Assembly: GCA_946894095.1 (NCBI GenBank)
Contig: OX335649.1
Span: 18,680,001-18,744,000 of the forward strand
Length of the DNA stretch: 64,000 bases
Source: Incurvaria masculella
Taxonomy: Eukaryota > Arthropoda > Insecta > Lepidoptera > Incurvariidae
Reading direction: 5' to 3'
Shown here: positions 6,801 through 62,561 of the stretch, piece by piece
Position numbering within the stretch: position 1 is the first letter of the stretch
Layout of the letters: every line of letters begins with the position of its first letter
Translations under genes and position numbers: made by a program
The notes under the pieces: generated by a model
The model's input: the letters and a program-made list of their open reading frames with translations, nothing else
Database searches by the model: none
Told to the model about the DNA's origin: nothing

Positions 6801-9800
6801 AGACTGTCAAATATTTGACCAATTTCTCGTCCGATATTAAAAGACCCTACCCTGCCGGGTAATGGCCGCAGGACCCTTTTTTACGAGGACTAAATTGATT
6901 TCCAAGCTTAAGAGGGTGTTAGCAATGGATCACATTCAATTCCATAATGGCGTAAGTTAAAGCACGTTTTATTATTCTTAAAAATAACTCAACTGATTAT
7001 AAAATTTCAAAAAAATTTAAGATAAATTGATTATTCAGCTGGATTTGAAACATAATAATTATATAAATCTGTGTCTCCCCTTCTTTGTTCAAACTTTTTT
7101 AATGCATTTTTATATTTTCTTCATTTCCCCGAATCTTACCCGGGTCTTACAAATTTATCTTTAAATTATGGCTAGACCATCAATCTACAAATGTACTTTT
7201 TTGATAATCGAAATTTGTTGCAGTTATTTCGTAATATAGTTAAATGTTGTTTTAATTACGCCTTTATGGAACTGAATTCAATTAGGTGCTAACTAGAAAA
7301 TACTAAACATGTTTTTTCGGTCTTGCCAACTGTTTTTAGGGTTCCGTCCCAAAGGGTGAAAACGGAACCCTATTCCTAAGCCTCCGCTGTCCGTCCGTCC
7401 GTCCGTCCGTCACAGGGCTGTATCTCATGAACCGTAATAGGTGGGCAGCTGTAATTTTCACAAAGTGTGTATTTATTTTGGCGCTATAACAACAAATAGG
7501 TAATATTAAAATAATATCAAAATAATATTAAAAAAAAATGATATTAAAAAACTTATTTTTTTTGTATTCAATATTTTACGATGGTACGGAACCCTTAGTG
7601 TGCGAGTCCGACTAGCACTTGGCCGGTTTTTTTATGTAGTTACATGGATTTTTTATGGATGGCTAATAAAATAGTCACCTTTATGATATGGCCCAACATA
7701 CCTTTGTTTTGATTATGTTTTCATCCAATGCGATACTACCTATCCGGTCATAACGTTACCACCTTGTATGGGAAAGGGATCTATTATAAGGGAATTCAAA
7801 ACATACAAAAATTAGGTACAATGTACAACAGATCGCATTCGTGACGAAATTTACTAATCTAACTTAAAAACATTAGACGTCCTGCATGGGCAGGACGGCG
7901 ATTTGAACCTATGATCTCTGGTATCCAAGGCAACGCCTCAGAAATGGAAACCGCTCTACTTACTGCTCTCTCCGTATATATACAAGTGCCTTAACTTTTT
8001 GAAATAGCAAAACTCGTTTTTAACACATTTCATTAGCTGATAGTGGAACGCTAGGCACAGATAATTTGGATTGGAGGACTTACATAAAACCATGGAACTT
8101 GGATCTACATAGTATACAAGCTTCTTGCATAAAACTCAATGTTTTTTAGTGAAATAAGAATAGCTACTTACACTATTTTGTCATATGATGAATAAATGCT
8201 TGCCTTCCCGCGTGGATTTTATTAAATCATTCCTTTTTCATCTCTAGGCATATTTTAATCGTCCGCTTATAATGACTGGAAAAATAAAGTATGTAAAACT
8301 TAAAAAACACCGGTTCTATGTTTGGGTTATATGTGGTTAACTTTACGTTTACAAACCTCACAGTTGTTATTTGGTTATGATATTACAGTTATATATCACC
8401 ACACATATTTTCGGTGGTTTGTTGAAATAATTGATTCGACATCTACATGCAGGTATCTTGGTCAGATTTTGAAAAATATGTTGTTCAAATTAATAGTTCA
8501 AATATGAATTCCCTTCCGAGGTATTTTCCCGAAATTACGACCTGGGGTCCTTCAAACGTGGTGTGAAGAAGCATCGGCAGGAAGTTAATTTCTCAATCAT
8601 TGAAGTCAAAATGTCTTAGCATACTATTAATATACGCAACGATATTGCCATTCAGTAAGTAGAATAATCATAGAAAAAATGCGATACACATTTGGATAGC
8701 TTAGATACAGATTTCATTTAATTTAAAGTATTAATATAAGGTAAATTATTGTTATAAACACAGAACACATAACAATACACACAAGGAATAGACACATATG
8801 AAAAAAAAAAACATTACAATGACAATACTAATCAACCTTAACAAACAGCAATCATAAATAAAAAAGTTCTTCAAAGTCAGCCGAAGCTGCTTGAGCCCCT
8901 AAGACGCTTATTGCGTTACCCCTTTGGATCTAATTAATCTATAGACTAATGCGACGAATAAAGACGGCTTTTGAGCGTAAGTCTTAGTGGTTCAAAATTG
9001 TTCCAGTTCTGTTATTTTGTTTCTAATGTTTAAATGGCATTGTCGTTGGATTTTCCAAAAGAACAGGCCATTACCTTCTTTTTTATTCCTTTTTTAATTT
9101 CGTGAAAATGAGTCGGACTTGCACACGATGGGTTCCGTACAATCGTGAGATATTTAATACAAAAAGTCACGTTTTTTGTATGGGGGCGGATTTTTTAAAA
9201 TTATTACCTATTTGTTGTTATAGCGGCAAAATAAATACATACTCTATGAAAATTTCAGCTGCGTACCTATTACGGTCAGCCCTGTGACAGACGGACGGAC
9301 GGATGGACGGACAGCGGAGGCTTAGTAATAGGGTAAACATCGTACAACCATACCATCTTGTACGATGGTACGGAACCCTTCGTGTGCGAGTCCGGCTCGC
9401 ACCTGGCCGGTATGTCCAGTTCGAGACATGTGTGTGTGCGCCGGTAGGTGGCGACAGCGGCGCCCGCTTCAGCGTGTCGCCGAGCAAGGGCGGCGGCGGG
9501 GGTGGGGGTGGGGGTGGGGGCGCGTGCGGCGGCGGCGAGGGCGAGGGCGGCTTCACTCAGTGGCTGCACGCGATGCGGCTCGTCGCGCGCCTGCCGGCCG
9601 GCGTTCCGCACCACTTCCGCAAGAAGGTAAGCTCCGCCGTACGCCTATTCTTGCGATTCCGCGCTCAGGAGTCAGGAATACTTCAGTCCGGAAACCCGCT
9701 TTTGTAGTGTGGCCAAGCGGTTTTCTCGACGCAAAAGACTCCCGAGCCCGGGATTTCAACATCCAGTTGAGAAAACGGCTTTTTCAGTGTGTCAAAGGGG

Positions 9801-12800
9801 TTTTCTCGACGCCCGCCTCGGTAATTTAATGATTCAAGGCTTTCCGTCGAGAAAACCGCTTTGATGGACTACGACGCCTTATTATTAGAAATCCGTGCTC
9901 AGGAATCAAGAGTGTTTGAGTCGAGAAAACGGCTTTTTAAGTGTGTCAACGCGGTTTCCATTCGCCATTCGAGGTTTTTGGTCGACAAAACGTCTTAGAC
10001 TAGGAGGTCGCGACAAAAATGGTAACGATAACGTAAATGGCTGAAAATGGGTTCACGGGATAAAGTACAACCCTCTGAAGCTAAATGTGTCAGTCTGCCT
10101 GTTCCAAGTGGTTGCGTTACGTAGATAAGGCGCCTGAAAAAGTAGTTATGGTGACAAAAAATACATATGATAAGGTAAATGGATGGAAATGACGAAGCAC
10201 GAAAGTATCAATACATACTTGCTTAGCAATCCTGAAACTGAACTAATCTTTGGTTGCATTTAGTAGTTATAGGCGATTTAGGTTACAGATATAACTTTAG
10301 GTATATTTAAGTATTATTTAAGTAACCGTCTGTTTATTGTTGTATAATTAATAGGTATCAATGATTCCAGATAATCAGTATATTCATCAGCAGGTACATA
10401 CCAGCATCTATTATATTTTATGTAGCCAATCTAGAAAACGCAACCACTTAGGACGGGCAGACCGACATATTTAGCATCAGAGGGTTGGTCTCTAACATGT
10501 CAACCCAGATTCAGCCATTTACCTTATCGTGACCAAAAATGTCGTGACCTCCCGGAATATCTTGGACACACTGTGACGGCCAATTTATGGAATCCCGTGC
10601 TCAATAATCAGGAATATTCCAGAAGAGAAAACTGCTTTTGTATTGTGTCAAAGCGGTTACTCATTAATCAAGAATTCCCGTCGGAAAAATTATCCCTGAA
10701 AAAAAAATATTCTCGACTGAAAGATACCTGATTCCTGTGCACGAAATTAATATAATATGCCTGCTGTTCGTATGTATGTTCGTATGAGTTTTGCCTGCAG
10801 CACTTTATTGAATGTGTGTGCATACCGTAATTTTTTTACTGTAAATATTACTGTAAATAACTCAGATGTGATTTACAATATTTTCACTAATTTATTCTTT
10901 TAATAAGTACACATTGTCACAAAACGTTTGTCAACATCACATTTTTGGCATGACTGATATAATGTTATCAGGTTTCACAAAACATAACTGTCACTGAGCT
11001 AGTCAAGTAGTTTTACAGTATATTTCACTTTATTAATCTTTAGATGTTGAGTTTCATCACATATTTAAAATCCCTTTCTCCGGCGATCACACTCGTACAA
11101 ATATTATAAGGATTCACAGGCGTTTACAATAATTTAGATTGATTTATAGCGGAGCTACATCCGATCATGCTCTCAGGGTCCATGCCCGTCTGAAAGGGGA
11201 CGGGAATGGAGGCTCCTTCGTATGACGGCGCGTATTAGTGGCTAGCTGATGTCTCCACTCGGGTCAATTTAGTTCTGTATAGTCTCCCGAGAGGAGCTCC
11301 GTAGAACGCGCCCTCAGCGTGCCACTGCGTCGCGTCGCCCGCCCGCGCTTACACTTCGTTTTTGCCTAGCGTTAATTATATCTCTGCTCCAAAGCCTGGT
11401 TTTCACCTAATGCTGATATATTTTATTTATTTATTTATTTATTTATAGGCTTACATACAGGATTGAATCACATTAAAAACAACAACAACATGTATAGTAA
11501 CAAAAGCTTATGAAACATCCCACGAGTAGTAAGCACAGCATGTGCTAGCAGTATTTAGAATAAACAAAAAACACAAAACAAATATGGCAATATAAAAATA
11601 GCAAGGAAAATTAAAATGAAGTTTCCAATAAAGAAGTAACAATAAACGACAAAACTGATGCATTTAAGAGAGTGACAGCAACAATAAAGCAAATAAATTA
11701 AGTGAAAGAAAAGCAAAAACAACATTAGGCTAACAATGATGCATGAATGGTCAAAAGGTAAGTGGTAACAAGCAATAATTATATGAGGTTTTTATACTTA
11801 ATTGCGAACATGAAAAAAGGTCACACTTATCCCTAAAGTCGTTGCATGTTTTCAGCATTCTGTTAAGGGGAGAATGAGAACCTATGTTCGTGCGAGAGTT
11901 AACGGTCTGGAAAGGCATTCTATTTTTTCGAATCTACTTGCAAGACGAGGGACTTTAATATCAATTCCTTGTTTGAGTTCAGGGCAATCGATCAGTGCAT
12001 TGAGAATTGTATGTATGAACATTAAGTCAGCCCGGGAACGACGTAGTGCTAATGTATCCATTGAGTAATACTCGAGGCGAAGGTTTGTGCTAGTGAGTGA
12101 CTGACAACGATTGTCAGCGAAAGTTAGGTGGTACAAAAATCGCTTTAGCACTCTCTCGAGTCTGTCGATATGTACCTTGTAACATGGACACCAGGCCGTG
12201 CTGCAGTATATAATAGGATGAGAGTATATGGGCTTTTATAAAACACACTTTAATTTTAATTGACACTTAAAGGGTCTTTATTACTAATGTGCTGATTATC
12301 TTGTACTGGTATTTATTGCAAGAGCGTCGCGATTTAGCCAATCAGCAGTAGGTGAAAAAGGCCCTTAGGGTCGTAACGTGATGTTAAATAGCGTACTAAC
12401 TTTCCACAATTATATAGGCTATCAAATGCATTAATACTTTTTTCAAATTCTACTGGTAGTTTCACATATAAGCGCGTTCAAACAAAAAACCAAAACACAG
12501 TATTAGTACCAGTAGTACTATTAAAATACTATTACTAAAACAATGACTTAAAAACAGCAAAAATATAAGAATTATGTAATATGCATATATTAGAAGAAAT
12601 TGAGTAGAAAACAAAAATAAAAAAGAAGCAATCCCTCTACAATTAGGTCATTATTCTTGTAGTATAATATAAATTGTTTATTTTAACAATTAAATAATAA
12701 GTGAATACTCATAATAATTTCTAAAATGCGTGTCAAGTAAATGTATAACCACTAAACGCAAATTTAACGTGTACGTGTGTAGCTTCTATTGCGGTTAACG

Positions 12801-15800
12801 AAATTTGAATAAATTCGAGATGTGTAAATATTTTATCGTCAACGAAAGAGAAAATTGCTTCAACGAAGATAAATTGGACGAAAGACTACTGAAGTAAATA
12901 AAGTTAGCTCTTTGGGGAATATTCAAAGCGGTGAAATATTATAAATGTTATTAAGGAGCGGGTGCGGGCGGGTACTTACTTCTCGAACGGCTTAGGTTTT
13001 TGCTATTTTTAACCGACTTCAAAAAAGGAGGAGGTTATCAATTCGTCGGAATCTTTTTTTTTTTTGGACGGAGCGTAATTTGGAAGAAAGTCGTTGAAAG
13101 TTTTTCCGATAGCTTTATTTGCTGTTCACATTGAATTTATCAGACCAAAACACTACTCATTAGAATATACAGGTGGCCTGAAAATGCAGGCTTTCCTTCA
13201 CACCACGTGTTCTAGGCATCAAAATGAAAACCTATACATATTTCAAAAGAGCTACATATACATTTGTAAGGGAAAGTTTAATTATTATTTTGATTGGAAA
13301 CAACATTAGTTTAATTTTTAGAATACGCGTTTTGGAGAAACGCACTGTAAGAAGACTCGCAGAGACCTTGGAATAATATTCCGGGTGGGCTCTCCATCGC
13401 ACAAAGGGGCGCGTATTCAGTGGGAAGCGGACTCCGTTCAGTGCGGCTCCGACCTTCCAGGGGACAACTCTTCGTATTGAAGATCACGTAGGGATTCTTG
13501 CTCCGACCTGACGCATGACCTCAGTTTCAGATACCACAACGAGGATAAAGCCAAGCTCGCCTACATGAATTTTACATCAGCACTAACTCTTATGGATATC
13601 CTACGACTGCCGTTTGTCTGTCTCTTTTATAGGGTTCCGTACCCAAAGGGTACCAAACGGAACCCTATAACTAAGCCTCCGCTGTCCGTCCGTCCGTCTG
13701 TCACTGGGCTGTATCTCATGAACCGTAATAGGTAGACAGCTCAAACTTTCACAGAGGGTTTATTTATTTTGCCGCTATAACAACAAATAGATAAATAAAT
13801 AATAATAAAAAAACGCGTTTTTTAAATTTAAATCCTGTACGATGGCACGGAAACCTTCATGTGCGAGTCCGACTCGCACTTGGCCGGTTTTTCTCTGAAC
13901 CGCATCAATTTTAACAGTTTTCTGTGCAACAGTTATGTTGATTTCGAACCTGCCTGTTCATGTTAGTTATGGGTTGTCTGTGTGATGTTTCCTCCAGTGC
14001 AACAATGATGGTTCGCTTGCGATTTGCAGCTGTGGCTGACACTCGCCGAGCGCCACCTGGTGGTGCGCGGCGTGGACTGGGCGGCGGCCGAGCGCGCCAG
14101 CTTCCGCGGCACCGCGCAGCCCGAGGACTCGGAGCTGGGCGCGCAGATTGTCAAGGTCAGCCGCGTGTCACACGCGCTTCAAACTAGGCGCTAGGACTAG
14201 CCAACTAATCGCGCCATACAAATTTACCTTTTAACAAAAAAAATGTAGCGAAACGCCTCAGTAAGCTCAAACATAACTCCAGACTAATATTTTTTTTTAA
14301 TATTATTTCATTCCATCATTAATTTAAACAATAATTGTAATGATAAAGTAGATTTTTCACATTAGAAATTTGAAAGTAATATGATGTCTAGATATAAGTA
14401 AAACAGCATTTATGCATAAACAAATAATTACATTTGCTTTAAGATTTCTACATTTAGTCACAAAGGTTCGGAAATGGATACCTTTTCAACAATTCATTTT
14501 GTATGGAAAAACGAAACATACATTAACAAAAATAGTTTGATCTCTAGACAAGAAAACACATATTGTACTGATGCAACGTGTAATCGTTTACATGGGGGGC
14601 CTCGTCAAACTTTGCGATTTGGCTAGTACCAGGACCTTAAGGTGGCCCATCCCGCTCAACTCCCCATACAAATGGGGAAAGAAGATCACGCCCATATTTC
14701 TTGTCAGAGATCCCAAATTTTACTCAAAATAACTTTATTTGATCGAACTAGATGTGTGATGACCGTTGGCATTGTAAAATTGTGTTTGGTTTCAAAGTTA
14801 TAAGGTCCTAAAGTTCGAATTTTTCGCGCGTTTTATACAATAACTTTGGAGGTGGATTACGCAATGATAAAGTAAGAACATCTTAAAAAGATTAGTCATC
14901 AGACATAGCTTATTTAATCAATATTTATAATCTATTTGGTACTGTTAGATTTTTTACTACAGCGGTCGTGGTTTACTTTTAGCTATAAGTCCTTTTGTAA
15001 TTAAAATTTTCGTAAATCTTACCAAATCATAGTTGTGCATAGTACATTGTTTTTTTTTTTGTGGACATGTTGCATCTTCCTCATCACAGAGCCTGTCTTT
15101 TTCTTGGAAACAGAGAAGGTCCCATAGCGCAACAGCACGGTTTAGTACCGTGCCCGCGAATTAGTTAGTCCCGCCGGGTTGGGCCACCTTAACGTTGTAT
15201 ATTGGAGCTGTATATTAGCGTTTGGCGGATGGGAGCTGCATGAGAAGAGTGTCCGAAGGATTATTTTTACTTTACGGCCGTAACTGGCTTCAAAATGAAG
15301 ACAGGCATTTGTATCAACTTTCCGAGCGTGGTTCAATGCCAATGCGTTGGGATCAAAATGCAAACGAAGCGCTCTGCAACAATGTGTGTCAATTTTATTA
15401 AAATAAGCGTCAAGCGCTCTGTTTAACTTGACGATTGGCACTTGTGAAATGTTATTCCGTCCGAATTTGAAGTGCATCTTGAGGTAAAATATAGTTCTTA
15501 TAATTCTTCATGCACTAACTACAAAATTACACATTGTGGATTTTATACGATATGCATGGTTTTGATGTTTTGCACAAAACTACTTTTATACGTTGTGAAT
15601 TTTATACATAGTGAATACGACTCGTGGACAGCGGTGCGCGATGTATGTTGTATGCAGGACAAGAACAATTTTCATAAAATAGCGAGTAAAAAATAGATTT
15701 AAAAAAATATATTACAGTGACTATTGTAAACTTAAAGATGAATATAGCCCCGAAGTATGTATAGAAGAAGAAGTGAAGTAATGCGGAACTAATGGTGCAC

Positions 15801-18800
15801 TGAATTTCAGGATCTCCACCGCACTGGCTGCTCGTTGTTCTGCGGAGCGGAGGGCCGCGAGAACCAGGCCATGCTGCGGCGGGTGCTGCTGGCGTACGCC
15901 AGGTCAGTGCGCAATCAATATTTACCTGTTTTAAACTTTATCTGGTAGGCCGAACGGTTAAATAAAGTAAAAAAAGTAAATATACTTTTTCGTACTGAGC
16001 GCTTTTTAGGGTTCCGTACCCAAAGGGTGAAAACGGAACCCTATTACTAAGCCTCCGCTGCCCGTCCGTCCGTTCGTCCGTCCGTCCGTCCGTCTGTCAC
16101 AGGGCTGTATCTCAGTAACCGTAACAGGTAGACATCTGAAATTTTCACAGAGTGTGTATTTATTTTGCCGCTATAACAACAAATAGGTAAGATTAAAAAA
16201 ATAATTAGAATTAAAGGGGGCTCCCATACAAAAAACGTGTTTTTATTGACGATGGTACGGAACCCTTCGTGTGCGAGCCCGACTCGCACTTGGCCGGTTT
16301 TACTATGAAGTATGTGTAATCGTGGTCACATTACTTCAAGAAAGAGAGAGCTGTAAAAAGAACTACAAGACTGGAACCGAACGAGCAAAATATACCTCTT
16401 CTACTCTACCGCTATTTCGTCACCTGATATATATACCCTTAATTTATATGTCTACGTTTTTATTTTATTTCCTTAATTTAAATTCGGAAGGGGTCGATCA
16501 TATATTTGAAATTTCGCAATTGACTACAAAAGTGATGTTCAGAATTACTTAGCTGCCCGTCCGCCCGCCTGCCTATCTGTCTTTCTGTCTACTTGCCTGT
16601 CCGTCTGTCTGTCTGTCTATCCGTCTGTCTGTCTTTCCAGCCGTCCGTCCATCCGTCCGCCCGCCTTCCCGCCTGCCTGCCTGCCTAGCTTAGGCAAATT
16701 AATAGCCACCACCCCAACTGTAACGTTTTTTTCACACGATATCTTCCTTCACCATATGAATTAATGTAATACAAAAGCATTTATCAAACTCGAAGAGAAG
16801 TTAAACGATGCCCACCAACGGGTAAACCACGGCGCCCGGGGTGGAATCTTTATGAGAAAAATAGAACAGAAAATCTTGACATCAATCTGGGAAGCTAAGG
16901 TTCTCGTTGGGCGCTTTATGCAGTGCTTCTTGGCATATTATACGTTTTACATGGTTTTCTTTTTTTGTGAATTCACGTTAGGAATATTATACGTTGTGAC
17001 CATTATACGTTCTGCATGATGCAGTTGATTCTATTTTTAAACTTTCTTCATGCACAACGTATAAAATTATAAGTTGTGAATATTATACGATATGCATGGT
17101 TTTGATTTTATGGAAAAAAATACTTTTATACGTTGTGAATATTATACGTAGTGAATACGACTCGGAATCAAGGACGGCGCTTAGATTGCGGAGGTCTATC
17201 TAGCATACATCGCACTATAGGTATACCGACTCGCTCGTCCTTTCATAGCAATGAATATTGGGCTGCCCTCCATCCACCCTTACGACCGCTAAATAGTGTT
17301 TGCTCAATCAACATTCAAGGTTACCGACAGCATATTCAAACTTTGTGAAGATTGATTATAAACTGCTCTATAATATTATATTGTTAGTGCGTTCGTTTTT
17401 TAGGGTTCCGTACCCAAAGGGTGCCAACGGAACCCTATTACTAAGCATCCGCTGTCCGTCCATCCGTCCGTCGGTCCGTCTGTCATAGGGCTGTATCCCA
17501 TGAACCGTAATAGGTAGCCAGCTGATATTTTCACAGAGTGTGTATTTATTTTGCCGCTATAACAACCAATTGGTAAAAAGTAAAAATAATAAAAAGTAAA
17601 GGGGGCCGCCACACAAAATAGGTTTTTTTTGTGTTAAATCTTGTATAATGGTACGGAACCCTTCGTGTGAGATTCCGAAACGCACTTGGCTGGTATTTTA
17701 GTCTCTCTTCGTCCGTGGTAACGGAACGTGGAACTGTCCTTAAAAGAGGCTATTAACACTAGATTCTCTCATTAGTTAACTTTGTCGAAGTATATTTTTT
17801 AGATCATCAAACTTAAAACGAGTTTTGCTCTGCGCTATGTTACTATGCGGGTAGGCTACGTCATGACAGAAATAAATAAAAGTATTAAAAGTCAACGTGC
17901 AAATGTTTTTCTTGTTGCCACTGGTGTAGTGAATGCATCGCTTACGGTGGCGCTTGGTTCGGGTCACCTCTTTCCCTAAAATAGGGTCGATAGAGGTGAT
18001 GGGTGTACCCGGCGTGATGCTCGTGAGCGGGTGCTGTTTGTGGGGACTAGCCTGCTGCAATTGGCACCGTGTTGATTAACGGTGGTCTGTGGTAGGTGTA
18101 GTCTCTACCTAGTATCATAAACTGTTGACTTATTCAAGTCAAAAATAGAATGATAATAGTGCATGAATTGGCTGGGGTTGGGTTCTTAGCTACAATCCGC
18201 ACAAGTACAACAACACTTGGCAATGGTTATCTTACAATACTTACTTTTACAATTTTACATGTTATTAGATGCAGTACCCGACTCTACTGAAGGAAATTTC
18301 GTTTTGTGAGACTTTAAATTTAAAAAGTACCCAATATCCCTCTCTCTACACTGAGTTATCTATCAATGCAACGGCAGCATTGATTTTTTTATTGATTTAT
18401 TTTGTTGGAAACTAGCCAGATAAATAAAAAATCTATCAAATTGCTCGTTGCAGATGGAACAAGGACGTGGGCTATTGCCAAGGGTTCAACATGCTGGCAG
18501 CCATTATTTTGGAAGTGATGGAAAAGTCCGAATCCGATTCTCTCAAGGTAAATATTTTTAAAAACTTTGCTTCAATCGCGTTGAGTACGTTTTGGTAATT
18601 TTCAAATAAAACAATCTGTTTTTTTTTTCAAAATTTTCTAAATTTCTATCACTCGTGGTGATTATTTCATACCAAGGGTAAGAAACATTTTGGATTTCAT
18701 TAGCGATTGTCAATTATCTCTTGTAATCGAGACAGTTTCTTGGTAATCCTTTACATGGATAATATGTCGATTAAATTAATTAAAATAATTTATAATATTT

Positions 18801-21800
18801 TATTTAAAAAGTTCGTCCAAAAATATATCATATTTATGAAAATAAAAACGAACCGAAACCATAAAAAAATAACAAAAACACAAAGTTTATTGTAAATATG
18901 GCATCAGCAACCTCACCTTAGAAACGTCAAAACTCTATCCGTAATTTCTGCAAGTTGTATTTACGAGTTTTTAGATGAACGATGTACTCTAAACTGCAGA
19001 CGTAATAAGGTCAAACCTATAATAAAATCTTTTGTTTGTCTTCAAACTAATTTTAATGTAATTGACGAGCACAAAGTTTCAAATGAAACATCATAGGTTA
19101 TGTTAATATGATGTTTTATTTGCCACGGCGTCATTTGATTAGCACAATTTGGAACAATTATTTTTGGAATATTATCCAATAATATTATGTTATGTAGATT
19201 GAGTAAATGTAATTTAAGAATCTATTTTAGATTATTTTGCAGGATCTCTGACAGCTCTGAGAGATCGGATATATGCATCGAAATAAGCAGTTTTCCTCCT
19301 ATTTCTTCCCCATTAAAGACAAACATAAATTATTTACATTACACTAGTTTACAAAATTTTATTTTTTGTCTGTTGCCGCGAATTTTATAGTGTTTGTTGT
19401 ACGCTTATGACGTGTCACTTTGAAATCTAACCTTACAATTTGTTGTGCAGCTCAAGTTACTTTATTGTTGATTTTCATCATTAGTGTTTTTGTTTGATGA
19501 TAATGTGTGTGTTTCACTTTGTTCAGATAAATATCTAAAGTTTCTGCAATACTTCAAGAAAAAGTTGTGCAAACGATCCAAACATTTTGCTACATTTGTG
19601 GAGAATATGTAGTCCATAATTGTAGAAGATCTGTATCAGAGTTCTTTAAAATACCTATTATCTGTTTATTAGGATATTCTTGGATAACAATGAGAAGTCT
19701 TGGGTACCTGATTGTGTTTGTAAATCGTGAGAGATTTGAATCTTATATTGATTTTGAATTGATTTGATCTTATATTGAGATTTGAATACTCTTTGAATTT
19801 ATTTTTTTTTGTTCATACATATCTGAAACTCAAAAACTAGAGCTGATCAAAAAAATCTAATTATATATCTAAACTAAGCATGCCATGTGTAGCCAACAAC
19901 AACAAAAATGTTACCGGCAACAGGTACGTTGTAAACTAGTGTTATCGACTAACTCCAACGTCTCAGGTGATGATCTACCTGGTGGAGGCAGTGTTGCCGG
20001 AGGGGTACTTCGCGGACGACCTGCGCGGCCTGTCGGCGGACATGGCCGCATTCAGGGACCTCCTGCGCATCCGCCTGCCGCGACTCGCCAAGCACATGGA
20101 CCGCTTGCAGCGAGCTTCCGATGGTGAGGCTGTCTTTGATTCTTTGTCGGAATCAATTGTGTACAGCAGGTCTATTCCTGGCATTCAGCAATAAGGAATC
20201 AGGAATCCTGAGTCTAGGAAACCGTTGGGATTTTCGAAGCCATTTTTTTGACGAATATAATCCGAAACAAATTATCAATTAATCAAGGTTTTCCGTCCAA
20301 AAACTGAATAGACCTGCAGAATCAGAAACTTTGCCTAAGCATGATTAATTTATTTATCGGTTCACGAACAGCATAATACACAATACATGATAGAATACAA
20401 AATTATGCGGTTTAAGAATATGTGTACATTCTACAATCAGTGAACACAGCATGAACGTGACAACAACAAATTATCCCATTTAAAATTAATACAGTACAAA
20501 AATTTCAGTTCTAAGAAAAACAATTCAAAATCCAATATCATTCAAAATGTAATGTAATTTAAAATGTATCGTAATTCAAAATATAATACAATTATAAATC
20601 AAATACAATTGAAATTCCAATTCAATTAAAATTTCACTTCAAATAAGATTAAAATCAAATTTAATTAAATCGAAGTCAATCCAGATTATTGTCACATAAC
20701 AAACAAAGACTTAAAAATAAAATAAAATAACATGAAATAAAATTAAACAAATAAATAATTTCAATACAATTTTCATGATCAAATAGATTTGCAGTCTTAC
20801 TTTAGTGTCATTTTGGGTTAACAGATACGTATATTTAAGCTTCAAGATAATTGAACAAGTAATGATGGAAGCGACTCAGATCTGCATGAATGTAAAACAA
20901 GAAATTAGCTGGACGAGACCAGAAGTCGCCATTCTTACTAATTTACTATTATTTTTTTAAATTACTGCCACTTTACAAGAAAGCATAAAGTCTAGGGCGA
21001 GGACTGTCAAAAGACTGCAAGCAATATAAGCATACCAAAGTAAATCTTTCAAAAAGTCACATTATGCAAAAATTATATTCTAGTTCATACATAGGAAAAT
21101 AAAGGGAAGTACCCTATACATTATAGGTTTTCATTTATTGGATTCCTTAGAGACAGACGGACTAACCCCGAAGTGATCCTATAAGGGTTCCCTTTTCCTT
21201 TTGAGGAACGGAGCCCTAAAAACCGGCCAAGTGCGAGTCGGACTCACACGCGAAGGGTTCCGTACCATCTTACATGATTAAACACAAAAAAAACAGGGTT
21301 TTTGTATGGTTTAATTTTTATAATTTTTTTATTTTGCCTATTCGTGATAGCGACAAAATAAATACACATCCTATGAAAATTTCAGGTGCCTACCTATTAC
21401 GGTTCACGAGACACAGCCCTGTGACAGACGGACGGACGGACAGCGGAGGCTTAGTAATAGGGTTCCGTTTTCACCCTTTGCGTACGGAACCCTAAAAGGA
21501 ACCCTAAAAAGGAGGGTCTACGCCGATCGACGCTTCTACCACAACTGGTTACTCTCTTCAGGCGGCGGAGTGGAGCCACCGCTCCCGGACGTGTTCACGA
21601 TGCAGTGGTTCCTGACGCTGTACGCGACGTGGCTGCCGCGGGGCGCGCTGCTGCGCGTGTGGGACCTCGTCTTCCTCGACGGCAACGAGGTGCTGCTTCT
21701 AACCGCGCTCGCCATCTGGGACCTGCTGCAGGAGTGAGTGAACGAACGCCTTCACTGAAGAGGGATCCCAAAGGATACCAAAACTATCCACGGCGTAATA

Positions 21801-24800
21801 TTTAGCAACTTTCTGTGGAAATTGACATGGATTACTATTATAGCACCGTAACCAAGGCACTCGGTGCCCGACCAGGATCTTCCGTCCCATTCCTGAACTC
21901 CTCAACCAAGATATAAGAGGGACTTGTGGAGTTGGAAAGTTAGGTCAGGTCTTAAGAACGGCGCGTAAGCTATGCTCCCCATACAAACGTAGTTTACTAA
22001 TCATTTGGAAACCGCTATTCCAATTAAATTGATATTTAATATCTAATATCAAGTAACAAATATCTGTGTCTGCATGCTTTTGTTTTTTTGAAAAATCCAA
22101 ACAGAATGAAATGAAAGCAAAAAGAAAATCTTCATACGAATTTTGTTTTCTCTGTGGTTTGACCCAGAATACTTTTACTGAAAAACAAAGGCATGCAGAC
22201 ACAGATATTTGTAGCCTAATATTAGATACCAAATATCAAGTAAGTTGGAACAGTGGTTTTCAAATTATTAGTCAACTACGTTTGTATGGGAGGCGAAATT
22301 TTCTGATGCTTACGGGGCGACCTTAAGGCGCTAGGACTAGCCAACTACTCGCGCCATACAAATGCACCTTTAAACTAATGTAATAATATGTAGTGAAATG
22401 CCTCAGCAAATCCAATTAAAACTCCAGACTGGATTGTTAATATTTTTTGATTCCATCATTTATTTGAGTAATAATAATCATAAAAAAGTCAATTTTTCAC
22501 ATTAGAAATTTGAAAGTTATATGATTTTTAGATACAAGCAAAAACAGCATATATCCATTAAACAAATAAATCCATTTGCTTTTAGATTTCTACATTTAGT
22601 CAAAAAAGTTCGGAAATGGACACCATTTCAGCAATGTATTTTGTATAGAAAAGGAAAAATACATTAACGAAAATAGATTGATTCCTAGACAAGGAATAAT
22701 ATATTCTAAGAATGACACTTCTAACCGTCAGACTTAGTTAATTTGGGGTGCCTCGTCAAAGGCCCTGGTACTAGCCAAATCGCAAAGTTAGACGATCTAT
22801 GTAGAAACAGCGGCGGTCACTACGGACTCGTGCAAAGGTACAATTAAATTCTTACAAAAAATGTACGAATACATTGGTGATTTATGTTCGCCCAGATGAG
22901 CCTGAAATATCAACCGCTTTTACAGATGAATTAGCGCGATAAGACTAAGTCCATTTGACGGCGTTAAAAGTGTATAAACAATTGGTGGTCTCGCAGTCGG
23001 ATACTTTCGGCGCGCACAGCGGACGAGTTCTACAGCTGCATGGGAGGCGGCGCGGGCGCAGTGTATGCAGCGGGCGAGACACTGGTGGCGCGCGTGGTGG
23101 CGCTGGGCGAGGCGCCAGAGCTGCCGCGGTTGCGAGACCTGCACCGCTACCACGTGACACCGCCGGCCGCGCCGCCGCCGCCCATACACACCGCGGTGAG
23201 TACTACCTGTTGCGGATACCGCAGCCGGGTACTGTCGGCACGCACGGTGGACGAGTTCTACAGCTGCATGGGAGGCGGCGCGGGCGCAGTGTATGCAGCG
23301 GGCGAGACACTAGTGGCGCGCGTGGTGGCGCTGGGCGAGGCGCCAGAGCTGCCGCGGTTGCGAGACCTGCACCGCTACCACGTGACACCGCCGGCCGCTC
23401 CGCCGCCGCCCATACACACCGCGGTGAGTACTACCTGTTGCGGATACCGCAGCCGGGTACTGTCGGCACGCACGGTGGACGAGTTCTACAGCTGCATGGG
23501 AGGCGGCGCGGGCGCAGTGTATGCAGCGGGCGAGACACTAGTTGCGCGCGTGGTGGCGCTGGGCGAGGCGCCAGAGCTGCCGCGGTTGCGAGACCTGCAC
23601 CGCTACCACGTGACACCGCCGGCCGCTCCGCCGCCGCCCATACACACCGCGGTGAGTACTACCTGTTGCGGATACCGCAGCCGGGTACTGTCGGCACGCA
23701 CGGTGGACGAGTTCTACAGCTGCATGGGAGGCGGCGCGGGCGCAGTGTATGCAGCGGGCGAGACACTAGTTGCGCGCGTGGTGGCGCTGGGCGAGGCGCC
23801 AGAGCTGCCGCGGTTGCGAGACCTGCACCGCTACCACGTGACACCGCCGGCCGCTCCGCCGCCGCCCATACACACCGCGGTGAGTACTACCTGTTGCGGA
23901 TACCGCAGCCGGGTACTGTCGGCACGCACGGTGGACGAGTTCTACAGCTGCATGGGAGGCGGCGCGGGCGCAGTGTATGCAGCGGGCGAGACACTAGTGG
24001 CGCGCGTGGTGGCGCTGGGCGAGGCGCCAGAGCTGCCGCGGTTGCGAGACCTGCACCGCTACCACGTGACACCGCCGGCCGCTCCGCCGCCGCCCATACA
24101 CACCGCGGTGAGTACTACCTGTTGCGGATACCGCAGCCGGGTACTGTCGGCACGCACGGTGGACGAGTTCTACAGCTGCATGGGAGGCGGCGCGGGCGCA
24201 GTGTATGCAGCGGGCGAGACACTAGTCGCGCGCGTGGTGGCGCTGGGCGAGGCGCCAGAGCTGCCGCGGCTGCGAGACCTGCACCGCTACCACGTGACAC
24301 CGCCGGCCGCTCCGCCGCCGCCCATACACACCGCGGTGAGTACTACCTGTTGCGGATACCGCAGCCGGGTACTGTCGGCACGCACGGTGGACGAGTTCTA
24401 CAGCTGCATGGGAGGCGGCGCGGGCGCAGTGTATGCAGCGGGCAAGACACTAGTTGCGCGCGTGGTGGCGCTGGGCGAGGCGCCAGAGCTGCCGCGGTTG
24501 CGAGACCTGCACCGCTACCACGTGACACCGCCGGCCGCTCCGCCGCCGCCCATACACACCGCGGTGAGTACTACCTGTTGCGGATACCGCAGCCGGGTAC
24601 TGTCGGCACGCACGGTGGACGAGTTCTACAGCTGCATGGGAGGCGGCGCGGGCGCAGTGTATGCAGCGGGCGAGACACTAGTGGCGCGCGTGGTGGCGCT
24701 GGGCGAGGCGCCAGAGCTGCCGCGGTTGCGAGACCTGCACCGCTACCACGTGACACCGCCGGCCGCTCCGCCGCCGCCCATACACACCGCGGTGAGTACT

Positions 24801-27800
24801 ACCTGTTGCGGATACCGCAGCCGGGTACTGTCGGCACGCACGGTGGACGAGTTCTACAGCTGCATGGGAGGCGGCGCGGGCGCAGTGTATGCAGCGGGCG
24901 AGACACTAGTCGCGCGCGTGGTGGCGCTGGGCGAGGCGCCAGAGCTGCCGCGGCTGCGAGACCTGCACCGCTACCACGTGACACCGCCGGCCGCTCCGCC
25001 GCCGCCCATACACACCGCGATGAGTACTACCTGTTGCGGATACCGCAGCCGGGTACTGTCGGCACGCACGGTGGACGAGTTCTACAGCTGCATGGGAGGC
25101 GCTGCGGGCGCAGTGTATGCAGCGGGCGAGACACTGGTGTCGCGCGTGGTGGCGCTGGGCGAGGCGCCAGAGCTGCCGCGGTTGCGAGACCTGCACCGCT
25201 ACCACGTGACACCGCCGGCCGCGCCGCCGCCGCTCATATACACCGCGGTGAGTACTACCTGGTGGAGATACCGCAGCCGGATACTCTCGGCACGCACGGT
25301 GGACGAGTTCTTCAGCTGCATGGGAGGCGCTGCGGGCGCAGTGTATGCAGCGGGCGAGACACTGGTGTCGCGCGTGGTGGCGCTGGGTGAGGCGCCAGAG
25401 CTGCCGCGGTTGCGAGACCTGCACCGCTACCACGTGACACCGCCGGCCGTGCCGCCGCCGCTCATATACACCGCGGTGAGTACTACCTGGTGGAGATACC
25501 GCAGCCGGATACTCTCGGCACGCACGGTGGACGAGTTCTACAGCTGCATGGGAGGCGCTGCGGGCGCAGTGTATGCAGCGGGCGAGACACTGGTGTCGCG
25601 CGTGGCGGCGCTGGGCGAGGCGCCAGAGCTGCCGCGGTTGCGAGACCTACACCGCTACCACGTGACACCGCCGGCCGCGCCGCCGCCGCTCATATACACC
25701 GCGGTGAGTACTACCTGTTGCGGATACCGCAGCCGGGTACTGTCGGCACGCACGGTGGACGAGTTCTACAGCTGCATGGGAGGCGGCGCGGGCGCAGTGT
25801 ATGCAGCGGGCGAGACACTAGTGGCGCGCGTGGTGGCGCTGGGCGAGGCGCCAGAGCTGCCGCGGTTGCGAGACCTGCACCGCTACCACGTGACACCGCC
25901 GGCCGCTCCGCCGCCGCCCATACACACCGCGGTGAGTACTACCTGTTGCGGATACCGCAGCCGGGTACTGTCGGCACGCACGGTGGACGAGTTCTACAGC
26001 TGCATGGGAGGCGGCGCGGGCGCAGTGTATGCAGCGGGCGAGACACTAGTCGCGCGCGTGGTGGCGCTGGGCGAGGCGCCAGAGCTGCCGCGGTTGCGAG
26101 ACCTGCACCGCTACCACGTGACACCGCCGGCCGCTCCACCGCCGCCCATACACACCGCGGTGAGTACTACCTGTTGCGGATACCGCAGCCGGGTACTGTC
26201 GGCACGCACGGTGGACGAGTTCTACAGCTGCATGGGAGGCGGCGCGGGCGCAGTGTATGCAGCGGGCGAGACACTAGTGGCGCGCGTGGTGGCGCTGGGC
26301 GAGGCGCCAGAGCTGCCGCGGTTGCGAGACCTGCACCGCTACCACGTGACACCGCCGGCCGCTCCGCCGCCGCCCATACACACCGCGGTGAGTACTACCT
26401 GTTGCGGATACCGCAGCCGGGTACTGTCGGCACGCACGGTGGACGAGTTCTACAGCTGCATGGGAGGCGGCGCGGGCGCAGTGTATGCAGCGGGCGAGAC
26501 ACTAGTCGCGCGCGTGGTGGCGCTGGGCGAGGCGCCAGAGCTGCCGCGGCTGCGAGACCTGCACCGCTACCACGTGACACCGCCGGCCGCTCCGCCGCCG
26601 CCCATACACACCGCGGTGAGTACTACCTGTTGCGGATACCGCAGCCGGGTACTGTCGGCACGCACGGTGGACGAGTTCTACAGCTGCATGGGAGGCGCTG
26701 CGGGCGCAGTGTATGCAGCGGGCGAGACACTGGTGTCGCGCGTGGTGGCGCTGGGCGAGGCGCCAGAGCTGCCGCGGTTGCGAGACCTGCACCGCTACCA
26801 CGTGACACCGCCGGCCGCGCGGCCGCCGCTCATATACACCGCGGTGAGTACTACCTGGTGGAGATACCGCAGCCGGATACTCTCGGCACGCACGGTGGAC
26901 GAGTTCTTCAGCTGCATGGGAGGCGCTGCGGGCGCAGTGTATGCAGCGGGCGAGACACTGGTGTCGCGCGTGGTGGCGCTGGGCGAGGCGCCAGAGCTGC
27001 CGCGGTTGCGAGACCTGCACCGCTACCACGTGACACCGCCGGCCGTGCCGCCGCCGCTCATATACACCGCGGTGAGTACTACCTGGTGGAGATACCGCAG
27101 CCGGATACTCTCGGCACGCACGGTGGACGAGTTCTACAGCTGCATGGGAGGCGCTGCGGGCGCAGTGTATGCAGCGGGCGAGACACTGGTGTCGCGCGTG
27201 GCGGCGCTGGGCGAGGCGCCAGAGCTGCCGCGGTTGCGAGACCTACACCGCTACCACGTGACACCGCCGGCCGCGCCGCCGCCGCTCATATACACCGCGG
27301 TGAGTACTACCTGGTGGAGATACCGCAGCCGGATACTCTCGGCACGCACGGTGGACGAGTTCTTCAGCTGCATGGGAGGCGCTGCGGGCGCAGTGTATGC
27401 AGCGGGCGAGACACTGGTGTCGCGCGTGGTGGCGCTGGGCGAGGCGCCAGAGCTGCCGCGGTTGCGAGACCTGCACCGCTACCACGTGACACCGCCGGCC
27501 GCGCCGCCGCCGCTCATATACACCGCGGTGAGTACTACCTGGTGGAGATACCGCAGCCGGATACTCTCGGCACGCACGGTGGACGAGTTCTACAGCTGCA
27601 TGGGAGGCGCTGCGGGCGCAGTGTATGCAGCGGGCGAGACACTGGTGTCGCGCGTGGTGGCGCTGGGCGAGGCGCCAGAGCTGCCGCGGTTGCGAGACCT
27701 GCACCGATACCACGTGACACCGCCGGCCGCGCCGCCACCGCCCATGCACCGTAATTTAAAAACAATATTAAATAAGAGTCCATGTAAATTGTAATTTGTT

Positions 27801-30800
27801 TTTACGAAACGTTGGCATGGAGATGGATAACAATCTTTGAGTTATGTTTGAACGATTGTGAGCGAACAGGAGGTTTCAGAAAATTATGCCCAACTCATGC
27901 CATACTTACTTTTTGTCCCTACTGAAAACGCCTATGTTACCGTGAATTTAAGATTACAAAGAACAGGTAAAAATGAAGCACATGCATCATTCCAGGTGCA
28001 GTCCGTAACCAGGAGAGGCTTGAAATTGTTCTACTCGGAAGATGAAGGTGACTCTAGTGATGACGGAAATCGGTTGGCCTTAGCGACGGTAAGTTATATT
28101 TAATTACTCGTCCAAATCATTGTATGTATGTCGCAAAAATGTGATAAGATTAGGGTTTTGATCAGTAGACCCATCATTGAAATTCTATGCTCACGAATCA
28201 GGCATCTTTCCGTCGAGAAAATAGCTTCATCAACGGTTTTCTCCACCGCAAGACTCCTGATTCCTGAGCACGGAATTCCTAGAATAAGCCTACAGGTCCC
28301 TACAAAAACCCTGCCGATGTTAGAATTTAAAATTCCTTCATGACATGACCTTCATTTTAAATAAATATTCCGAATTAAAAACCGAATAAGAAAGGAAACA
28401 TTGCACACTTATCGAGCCCACGGTCAGTCTACATTACAGGCCATTTAATTTTTCCAGATTTGTTTAACCTAAATGGGGATTTCTATCCTCCTTTAACACA
28501 AGCTTCCAGGTAATTAAATTGATCGGTCGGTCGACTACTGCAGGTGAACTTGCCTCGGCGCGTGGAGACGTCGGGCGGCGACCGGCTGTCGCTCGACATC
28601 GGCGCCCTGAAGCGGCAGTACGCGCGCCTCCGCGAGCGGCAGCGGCAAGCGCACGTCATACTGGCCGCGGCTTGCGCACGCCACGCCGCAGGTACATAGC
28701 GACTAAAGAAATGTCATCCAAGACAAGATCTCTCATCTAATGGCACGATGGAGGTAAACTTGTCTCGGCGCGTGGAGACGTCGAGCGGCAACCGGCTGTC
28801 GCTCGGCATCGGCGCCCTGAAGCGGCAGAACGGGCGCCTGCGCGTGCGGCAGCGGCAAGCGCACGTCATACTGGCCACGGCTTGCGCACCCCACGCCGCA
28901 GGTACATAGCGACTAAGGAAATGTCATCCAAGACAAGATCTCTTATCTAATGGCACGACGGAGGTGAACTTGCCTCGGCGCGTGGAGACGTCGGGCGGCG
29001 ACCGGCTGTCGCTCGACATCGGCGCCCTGAAGCGGCAGTATGCGCGCCTGTGCGAGTGGTAGCGGCAAGCGCACGTCATACTGGCCGCGGCTTGCGCACG
29101 CCACGCCGCAGGTACATAGCGTCTAATGAAATGTCATCCAAGACAAGATCTCTCATCTAACGGCACGATGGAGGTGAACTTGCCTCGGCGCGTGGAGACG
29201 TCGGGCGGCGACTGGCTGTCGCTCGACATCGGCGCCCTGAAGCGGCAGTACGCGCGCCTGCGCGAGCGGCAGCGGCAAGCGCACGTAATACTGGCCGCGG
29301 CTTGCGCACGCTACGCCGCAGGTAGGTACATAGCGTCTAAAGAAATGTCATCCAACACAAGATCTCTCATCTAATGGTACAATGGAAGTTATTAACGTAT
29401 ACTACTTAATATTTACTGATAGTTATACAGTTTGAAACCTTACTTCTTTCCGACAATTCGTGCACCATGTCGAGGACATCATCAGGATAGCGGCGAAACC
29501 TCGCTAGTCCGGCTCGTCATTATTTCTTGTTATTACACGTTTCTAGTCCAAAGCAACTACTCATTCGACTTACTGATGTGTTTTTAATCAAGTTGTTTGT
29601 CAATTTTAGTTGGAGTACCTGCCGCGCCGACATCACTCACGGTTAATCATCTTCTGTTGGGAAAAAGCGCCATAGTCAGCTCGCGTGGACGCCGGCTGGG
29701 TCCACCACCTGGTGCGGTGCCTCCAACGCGCCGCCAGGCACCTTCCCGCGCCTCTCGCGCCCGCACCGACGACACTATCAGTTGGAAGGATGAGCATCAC
29801 CGCAGGACAGCCACGAGGCGGGAATCCATCAAGTGGAAAGACATCAAAAAGGTCAAAGATGATAGGAAAGGATCCCTGGAGTCCGACGAGGCCGGAGACG
29901 GAGTGATCGTTTCTGAGAGAGAAGCTAATGAAATGATGTCAGCTATGCGCTCCCGTAGCATGAGTGAGTCTTCGTCGTACTCATCTCGGTCACCATCAGC
30001 TTCTAGCACAGATACCAGTCTTTGTGATGACAACAACCGGGCTAGCGACTTTGATTCCGAGCCAGCAAGCGTTGATGATAACGCTGTTGCAGTCAATAGA
30101 GCCCCTGATACTAATATCAAACCACCGAATGAGGAATTAATTCGACTTTCGCCAATTCCTGGATTGGCTGAATTTGATTGTGGCGATGAGAAAATATACA
30201 GTAAAAATATGGAAAATGTGTCCGTCAACATTAAAGATAAACCTGCTACACAATTACAGGGAATACCTGAGAGCCCTATCGACGAGTTAAAACTCAATGA
30301 AGTAGAAGCTGTTACTGAGTTTGTTAGTTCGACTCCAGGTGAACAGCTTCGGAACTATTTGGAAGAATTTGAGAATAGAAGAAATAAAGAAGATAAATGG
30401 AATACGTATGAGGGCACATCAGCAATGTGTGGTTCAAAAAGTCCTCTGTTTGATTTAGATGATAAAAAATGTAAAATATTTAGCGATATTTCTTCTAAAA
30501 GTGACAGTGACCTACTCGGACTACAGTGTTCAATGAAAAAAGATCTCACTAAGACTCCTGAATTTTATAAAAACTCCCCAACGTATCCACCATCACCTAC
30601 ACGTATGGATTTTATGGAACTTAGATCATCAAAGTTAAAATCACCTCATAATTTTGATTTCAAATCGACATATGACAGCACGCATCACCTAACAGATCTT
30701 TCCGAAAAGTTGACAACATATTCAAGACAACCTGATATTATTGATAGCCTCATTATGAGTCCTAATTTTATGCCTGACATCGATTTGACTGAAAGGAATT

Positions 30801-48963: not shown

Positions 48964-62513
<13,550 letters not shown>

Positions 62514-62561
62514 CTGAACACACACACATTTATCTCCATTTGTTTAAACTACCCAAAAGGC

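What the first reader, a model, noticed from the sequence alone, without database searches (positions are those of the whole stretch)
22997..27750. A TBC1D30 coding exon amplified into 21 in-phase tandem copies
The exon for the last helices of the TBC domain is present as 21 copies with an exact 228-bp period. All 21 acceptors enter in the same phase and the 20 GTGAGT donors leave in phase 0, so exon G can join any copy and copies 1-20 can join exon I without a frame shift. I know no case of a TBC Rab-GAP with such an array. Possible outcomes: one copy chosen (isoform choice between type A and type B sequences), or a 4.5-kb exon adding 76 residues per copy.
Basis: partly seen in the sequence, partly recalled or inferred. 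Interest (0 to 1): 0.9.

Follow-up and report, generated by a model that had tools for sequence, protein, structure and literature searches.

The report
Moth gene exon repeated 21 times
In a moth or butterfly gene for a membrane-traffic regulator (TBC1D30), one coding exon stands 21 times in a row where the relatives examined carry it once; the first copy probably does the work and the rest are most likely spliced-over passengers, though up to 19 copies could still serve as the exon.

Summary
The array is real: 21 head-to-tail copies, exact 228-bp period, no indels and no stops, in an otherwise intact lepidopteran TBC1D30 orthologue. Two details need correcting: 19, not 20, copies keep the GTGAGT donor (copy 9 reads ATGAGT, copy 21 has none), and the exon lies just behind the Pfam TBC core. 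Of 101 proteins fetched, 52 hold the exon's motifs, each once. Each unit is a 199-nt exon (1 mod 3) plus a 29-nt linker. The linker is shorter than the intron limits I found for human and Drosophila, and splicing two or three copies together shifts the frame into stops. So simple productive mRNAs take one copy or read through in frame. Most likely copy 1 is the constitutive exon and copies 2-21 are an unequal-crossing-over array, spliced out with the intron. Copy 1 alone keeps the ancestral-like 5' edge (with an Ala kept in 47 of 47 relatives covering it) and an ordinary upstream intron; a second exon array in the same gene has decayed around an intact copy 1. Against a passive array: copies 2-21 show a modest synonymous excess (10 N : 12 S), so alternative use of several copies is not excluded. 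No transcript evidence was found; the species is unidentified.

The parts
21562..21733 (+). Exon upstream of the array (end of the Pfam TBC core); ends in phase 2 (GA|GTGAGT)
   Evidence: Pfam RabGAP-TBC in the spliced model ends at residue 276
22997..23195 (+). Copy 1 of the array exon, 199 nt, GTGAGT donor; only copy with an ordinary upstream intron and with the conserved Ala9
23196..23224 (+). 29-nt linker between donor of copy 1 and acceptor of copy 2 (same length after each of copies 1-20)
   Evidence: all four substitutions among linkers change the amino acid
23225..25019 (+). Copies 2-9, type A; copies 2-8 keep the GTGAGT donor
25020..25025 (+). Broken donor of copy 9 (ATGAGT in place of GTGAGT)
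25049..25703 (+). Copies 10-12, type B (copy 10 type-A-like at its 5' end)
25733..26615 (+). Copies 13-16, type A
26645..27527 (+). Copies 17-20, type B; copies 15-19 look like a duplicate of copies 8-12 (7-unit step)
27557..27749 (+). Copy 21, type B but copy-1-like at nt 186 and 191; no donor; reading on meets a stop at 27792-27794
27996..28088 (+). Exon I, 93 nt, entered in phase 0; both other frames hold stops
28544..28691 (+). Second array copy 1: intact exon (148 nt), matches 38 of 38 near-invariant residues of the orthologues
28754..29321 (+). Second array copies 2-4 (period 210): 8, 3 (one a stop) and 1 breaks at near-invariant residues
29610..32515 (+). Last coding exon (K) of the TBC1D30 orthologue, stop at its end
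9448..20123 (+). Upstream TBC exons at 9448-9626, 14030-14155, 15811-15902, 18454-18547, 19967-20123, open in the spliced model

Best explanation
A lineage-specific tandem exon expansion that is buffered by its own geometry. Unequal crossing-over multiplied a unit made of the 3' end of the upstream intron, the 199-nt exon and its donor (inferred from unit structure and copy relationships). The 29-nt linkers look too short to be removed as introns, and joining two or three non-adjacent copies shifts the frame, so extra copies neither add to nor easily break the protein. The transcript most likely uses the acceptor and the donor of copy 1, and removes copies 2-21 with the 4.8-kb intron to exon I (inferred). 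The array is then mostly a passenger. Exchange appears to have included copy 1 from about nt 25 onward, which would let selection on the working copy leave a weak imprint on the array (inferred).
For: Copy 1 differs from copy 2 at 8 sites, 6 of them in nt 1-24 against 2 of the remaining 204 (P 2e-5): a distinct left edge is kept and the remainder homogenised. Copy 21 shares copy 1's states at nt 186 and 191. Copy 1 has the highest score against 48 orthologue rows (204.9 over the first 63 residues, against 159.6-189.8 for the other 20). Copies 2-21 all carry A9V, a position that is Ala in 47 of 47 rows that cover it. Copies 1 and 10 have the only acceptors not 29 nt behind an intact donor; copy 1's has a yUnAy motif at -39, against none within 60 nt for 13 of the other 20 and one at -41 (beyond the linker, in the previous copy) for 7. 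Segmental duplication inside the array: copies 8-12 against 15-19 differ at 0, 1, 1, 1 and 3 sites. Same gene, same process: a second exon is present 4 times with copy 1 intact and copies 2-4 decayed, 14 N: 4 S. The window holds two further arrays, of 74-bp and 32-bp units. In an unnamed relative (P0098) the reading frame runs 43 residues past the exon's end without a second copy. Exon I is closed in both other frames. Published limits: donor-to-branchpoint 44-47 nt in human (PMC11291888, passages); 40-50 nt is the 'ultra-short' class in Drosophila (PMC5762160, passages).
Against: Among copies 2-21 the exon shows 10 N: 12 S where 0.63-0.71 N is expected (P 0.011-0.075 over nine settings of transition and CpG bias), and its N changes are milder than random (P about 0.01, on the 9 N of nt 1-189); a purely passive array should look neutral, as the second array does. 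19 of 21 copies keep acceptor and donor. Copy 1's better score rests mainly on its first 24 nt and may be an edge effect rather than selection. Copy 1's acceptor is not strong: pyrimidine fraction 0.47 against 0.53 (behind type A linkers) or 0.41 (behind type B linkers), and working exons E3, E7 and I of this gene also lack a yUnAy motif, so the branchpoint argument is weak. [quoted passage not shown] No RNA data were available.
Confidence: 0.6

Rival explanations
1. Mutually exclusive alternative exons: the spliceosome picks one of up to 19 donor-bearing copies per transcript, giving near-identical type A products and slightly different type B products.
For: All 21 acceptors and 19 of 21 donors are intact and in matching phase. 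The 29-nt linkers and the 1 mod 3 length favour one copy per productive mRNA. Exon parts of copies 2-21 show fewer and milder amino-acid changes than expected while linkers do not (4 N: 0 S; Fisher P 0.04 with copy 1 included, 0.10 without).
Against: 52 of 52 fetched proteins with the exon's motifs hold them once. All copies 2-21 share A9V at a conserved Ala, and type B copies depart at 4-6 near-invariant residues (copy 1 at 2, type A at 4). Type A differs from copy 1 by 2-3 residues, so there is little to choose between. No docker or selector complementarity stands out. Few events support constraint, and type A (1 N: 6 S) and type B (8 N: 6 S) do not differ significantly (P 0.16).
Confidence: 0.25
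2. One giant exon: the array is read through from copy 1 to copy 20, adding 76 residues per extra copy (about 1,500 residues in all).
For: The 228-bp period is a multiple of 3 and the frame is open for the whole array.
Against: Linker changes all alter the amino acid, mostly radically (C>W, C>W, G>R, V>M). With 21-26 substitution events and about 2.6% stop chance each, an open frame is expected anyway (probability of no stop 0.50-0.78). Donors inside the array are kept in 19 copies rather than lost. Pfam finds no domain in the read-through product.
Confidence: 0.06
3. Assembly error: the copy number was inflated, or haplotypes were joined, in a shorter repeat.
For: Copies 2, 5, 8, 13 and 15 are identical. 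Copies 8-12 recur as 15-19 nearly unchanged, a pattern a misassembly can also give.
Against: Types A and B, singletons in several copies, and distinct left and right edges give a structured order; the 4.8-kb array could be spanned by single long reads (the read type is unknown to me). The window has no N. A second, more diverged exon array lies about 800 bp downstream.
Confidence: 0.07

Closest known systems
Tandem exon duplications with mutually exclusive splicing (Dscam1, Mhc, mrp in insects; Kondrashov and Koonin 2001 as cited in PMC6071210; PMC9741552)
   Same: Adjacent homologous exons with the same splice phase, a length not a multiple of 3, and short spacing as a possible bar to joint inclusion.
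   Different: PMC9741552 (passages) describes such events in human as mostly ancient; here copies are 92-100% alike (0-18 differences; 228 sites for copies 1-20, 192 for copy 21), not seen in the relatives examined, separated by 29 nt, and no selector/docker was found.
Coding tandem repeats (minisatellites) evolving by unequal crossing-over (recalled)
   Same: Constant period, homogenised interior, distinct edges, segmental duplication inside the array.
   Different: The unit here spans an exon, both its splice sites and a mini-linker, so the array sits across splice sites rather than inside one exon.
TBC1D30, reported GAP for Rab8a (Yoshimura et al. 2007, as cited in PMC9198432; called the Rab8 GAP in PMC6864590)
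   Same: TBC domain, DUF4682, and the same order of conserved stretches as in lepidopteran orthologues.
   Different: Two of its exons are tandemly multiplied; none of the fetched proteins shows that.

Membership tests
TBC1D30 orthologue | RabGAP-TBC domain followed by DUF4682 | tested here: met
   Pfam E 1.9e-37 and 5.9e-19 on the spliced model; orthologues with the name TBC1 domain family member 30
TBC1D30 orthologue | Catalytic Arg and Gln motifs (IxxDxxR, YxQ; recalled) | tested here: met
   IVKDLHR (across exons 14030-14155 and 15811-15902) and GYCQG (18454-18547) in the model, by eye; both lie upstream of the array
Mutually exclusive tandem exons | Adjacent homologous exons with same-phase acceptors and donors | tested here: met
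   21 of 21 acceptors, 19 of 21 donors
Mutually exclusive tandem exons | Joint inclusion barred by frame or by intron length | tested here: met
   Exon 199 nt, linker 29 nt; exon I closed in both other frames. By arithmetic four or seven spliced copies would restore the frame; PMC6071210 limits the length bar to pairs of exons
Mutually exclusive tandem exons | Copies diverged and conserved between species | tested here: not met
   Exon motifs once in 52 of 52 fetched proteins that hold them; predicted proteins may hide unannotated copies
Mutually exclusive tandem exons | Competing RNA selector/docker pairing | tested here: inconclusive
   No helix clearly beyond 30 shuffles in six comparisons; best case 2 of 30; only gapless helices, mononucleotide shuffles
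Mutually exclusive tandem exons | Transcripts carrying one copy, with different copies used | not testable with these tools
   No RNA reads held; no near-identical protein found
In-frame coding tandem repeat (read-through) | Whole unit, linker included, conserved as protein | tested here: not met
   Linker 4 N: 0 S, mean BLOSUM62 -1.25; only four events, in line with neutrality rather than proof of it

The most novel reading that the evidence does not exclude
A one-of-nineteen exon cassette: any donor-bearing copy can be used, giving functionally equivalent or subtly different (type A or B) TBC1D30, in an array whose copies are kept translatable by selection and concerted evolution. It would be a splice-buffered exon array that can grow and shrink without touching protein length.
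Probability: 0.22. Interest if true: 0.85.

Novelty: new variant of a known kind. Interest (0 to 1): 0.5.

Why it matters
It suggests how an exon can be multiplied many times inside an apparently working gene without destroying it: a unit that includes both splice sites, a linker too short to splice and a length of 1 mod 3 keep simple productive mRNAs to one copy. It is a natural test of splice-site choice among near-identical competitors ordered along one transcript (first acceptor against nearest donor), and of whether concerted evolution with a working exon can keep passenger copies readable. For annotation it warns that an open frame over 4.8 kb need not be a 1,600-residue protein.

Tried and rejected
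Own genome: the same genome search was sent nine times and never answered, so arrays elsewhere in this genome were not counted.

Selector/docker pairing in the flanking introns: nothing convincing.

Structure: an orthologue (P0090, 29-row alignment) gave a poor model (mean pLDDT 49.7), though the stretch matching the array exon (about residues 297-350) is predicted as three helices with ten-residue block means of 68-88; I rest nothing on it and did no fold search.

Transcript or protein evidence: searches (array ORF, first 500 residues; C-terminal exon; composite of the upstream exon, copy 1, linker, copy 2 and exon I) found relatives only. The best local identity was 80% for the array query and 82% for the composite. 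In each of these calls just under 8,000 candidates were scored (a cap), and the tool's length limits mean proteins outside them were not seen.

Literature: ten searches, of which 41, 49 and 56 returned nothing; among the listed titles I saw no report of a TBC1D30 exon array. Lists were capped (20 of 118 papers shown for TBC1D30) and the library lacks most subscription papers. Papers seen as passages only: PMC11291888, PMC6071210, PMC5762160, PMC9741552, PMC9198432, PMC6864590; the rest as search listings.

Considered and dropped: reading the open frame as proof of coding (probability of no stop 0.50-0.78). Also dropped: taking copy 1's better score as proof of selection, since most of its differences from copy 2 sit in the first 24 nt. 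Also dropped: using P0094 (Diatraea) as evidence for a single genomic copy, since it ends seven residues past the exon.

Rows dropped: of 93 proteins in hand, P0091-P0093 (mosquitoes) were not aligned. P0064 was dropped from both profiles (misaligned in array 1; its array 2 row was sound). Proteins with 40% or more gaps over the exon were left out, leaving 48 rows for array 1 and 50 for array 2. The regular expression matched 42 of 45 proteins, each once; P0007 and P0036 have variants of the motif and P0045 starts within the exon. The recount used two shorter motifs on all 101 proteins: 52 hold one or both, none twice; the other 49 hold neither and say nothing.
Full report
WHAT IS THERE. The window contains a lepidopteran orthologue of TBC1D30 on the plus strand. 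The spliced model from 9448 to 32515 (with copy 1 of each array) reads 1387 residues with a single terminal stop. Its first 460 residues carry Pfam RabGAP-TBC (55-276) and DUF4682 (389-454). The best relatives are lepidopteran proteins, several named TBC1 domain family member 30. In a tree of 47 rows the window protein groups with Plutella (P0007) at 0.84 support, on the longest terminal branch; the species is not identified. The gene's 5' end was not modelled in full (a likely further exon lies at about 663-833).

THE ARRAY. Tandem Repeats Finder gives 22992-27749, period 228, no indels. Each unit is 199 nt of exon plus a 29-nt linker running from GTGAGT to the next CAG. All 21 acceptors stand in the same phase. 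Donors: 19 GTGAGT, one ATGAGT (copy 9, at 25020), none in copy 21. The frame is open from 22968 to 27794. Two sequence types exist: A (copies 2-9, 13-16) and B (10-12, 17-21), with copies 10 and 17 type-A-like at their 5' ends. Copies 8-12 and 15-19 differ at 0, 1, 1, 1 and 3 sites, so a block of at least five units was probably duplicated with a step of seven. The edges differ from the interior: copy 1 differs from copy 2 at 6 of the first 24 nt but at 2 of the remaining 204 (P 2e-5), and copy 21 shares copy 1's states at nt 186 and 191. This is what unequal crossing-over is expected to leave behind.

RELATIVES. In one search, 42 of 45 proteins matched the exon's motif, each once; of the other three, two have a variant motif and one starts within the exon. 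A recount with two shorter motifs on all 101 fetched proteins found 52 with the exon, none twice; the other 49 hold neither motif. Over 48 aligned rows, 37 positions are near-invariant (at most one row differs); copy 1 departs at 2, type A copies at 4, type B copies at 4-6. The two departures of copy 1 (S8T, S66T) also occur in Eumeta (P0090). Copies 2-21 all carry A9V, where 47 of 47 covering rows have Ala. In an unnamed relative (P0098) the frame runs 43 residues past the exon without a second copy; P0094 (Diatraea) ends seven residues past it and says nothing on this point. These are predicted proteins, and unannotated copies in an intron would not show.

WHAT SPLICING ALLOWS. The 29-nt linker lies below the limits I could find: a hard limit of 44-47 nt from donor to branchpoint in human constructs (PMC11291888, passages), and 40-50 nt as the slower 'ultra-short' class in Drosophila (PMC5762160, passages). 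[quoted passage not shown] That caveat holds here: non-adjacent copies could be joined physically. But 199 is 1 mod 3 and exon I has stops in both other frames, so two or three spliced copies give no full product; four would restore the frame. One copy, or in-frame read-through from copy k to copy m, is productive. If copy 9's acceptor were used, the transcript would have to read on to a later donor; copy 21's would end at a stop 16 residues after its PPPP. These outcomes follow from sequence; none was observed in RNA.

SPLICE SIGNALS. Copies 1 and 10 are the only ones whose acceptor is not 29 nt behind an intact donor. Copy 1 has a yUnAy motif at -39; 13 of the other 20 have none within 60 nt and 7 have one at -41, inside the previous copy. 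This is weak: working exons E3, E7 and I also lack the motif, and copy 1's pyrimidine fraction (0.47) is not better than that of most others (0.53 or 0.41).

SELECTION TEST. Counting distinct substitutions: the exon in copies 2-21 has 10 N and 12 S; the neutral expectation is 63-71% N; P is 0.011 to 0.075 over nine combinations of transition and CpG bias. Its N changes are mild (P about 0.01, on 9 N). The linker has 4 N: 0 S. The second array has 14 N (one a stop): 4 S, as expected without selection. The difference between the arrays is borderline: Fisher P 0.049 on 9: 12, 0.054 on 10: 12. Exon against linker: P 0.04 with copy 1 included, 0.10 without. Polarised on copy 1, type A has 1 N: 6 S and type B 8 N: 6 S, not significantly different (P 0.16). 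Events in a homogenised array are not independent, so I read this as a hint. It fits either real use of several copies or exchange between the array and a selected copy 1 (copy 1 beyond nt 24 is almost type A).

THE SECOND ARRAY AS CONTROL. At 28542-29386 the exon after exon I is present four times with period 210. Copy 1 matches 38 of 38 near-invariant residues; copies 2, 3 and 4 break 8, 3 (one a stop) and 1. Here the first copy looks like the working one. The window holds two further arrays whose units I did not recognise as exons, one of them between two exons of a minus-strand glycine dehydrogenase gene. Local tandem expansion looks like a habit of this stretch of genome rather than an adaptation of TBC1D30 (inference from one window).

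VERDICT. Observation right in the main, with two corrections. Most likely (0.6) copy 1 is the exon and the rest a passenger array, tolerated because its geometry keeps simple productive mRNAs to one copy. The alternative-exon cassette (0.25) is open and easy to test with long-read cDNA. The read-through protein (0.06) and the assembly error (0.07) are less likely. Function of the gene itself (GAP activity reported toward Rab8a, reduced cilium formation on expression) is known to me from mammalian work only (PMC9198432, PMC6864590, passages).

A recount led me to narrow the claim on relatives, to drop P0094 as evidence, to add the caveat of PMC6071210 and to correct the statement on acceptors (copy 10 also stands behind a broken donor).

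Noticed in passing
28542-29386: A second exon of the same gene (start of the DUF4682 match, LSLDIGALKRQYARL) is tandemly present four times, period 210; copy 1 is intact, copy 3 has an in-frame stop, copies 2 and 4 have changes at near-invariant residues.
   Followed up: yes
55231-56409: Array of about 37 copies of a 32-bp unit between two minus-strand exons of a glycine dehydrogenase gene; 32 is not a multiple of 3, so the long minus-strand ORFs there are one unit read in shifting frames.
   Followed up: partly
50410-52141: Array of about 23 copies of a 74-bp unit (also reported as periods 221 and 295) between TBC1D30 and the glycine dehydrogenase gene.
   Followed up: no
53478-62548: Minus-strand exons of a glycine dehydrogenase gene; Pfam GcvP2_C matches 57512-57793 and 53478-53744, while 60199-60411 and 62246-62548 look like further exons by eye only (no Pfam match).
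   Followed up: partly
27557-27794: Use of copy 21's acceptor would end TBC1D30 shortly after the array exon, before DUF4682; a possible truncated isoform.
   Followed up: no
29610-32515: The C-terminal exon is about 38-49% identical to most relatives over long alignments, while most of the second-array exon is unchanged across the relatives aligned; this protein has the longest terminal branch in the tree.
   Followed up: partly
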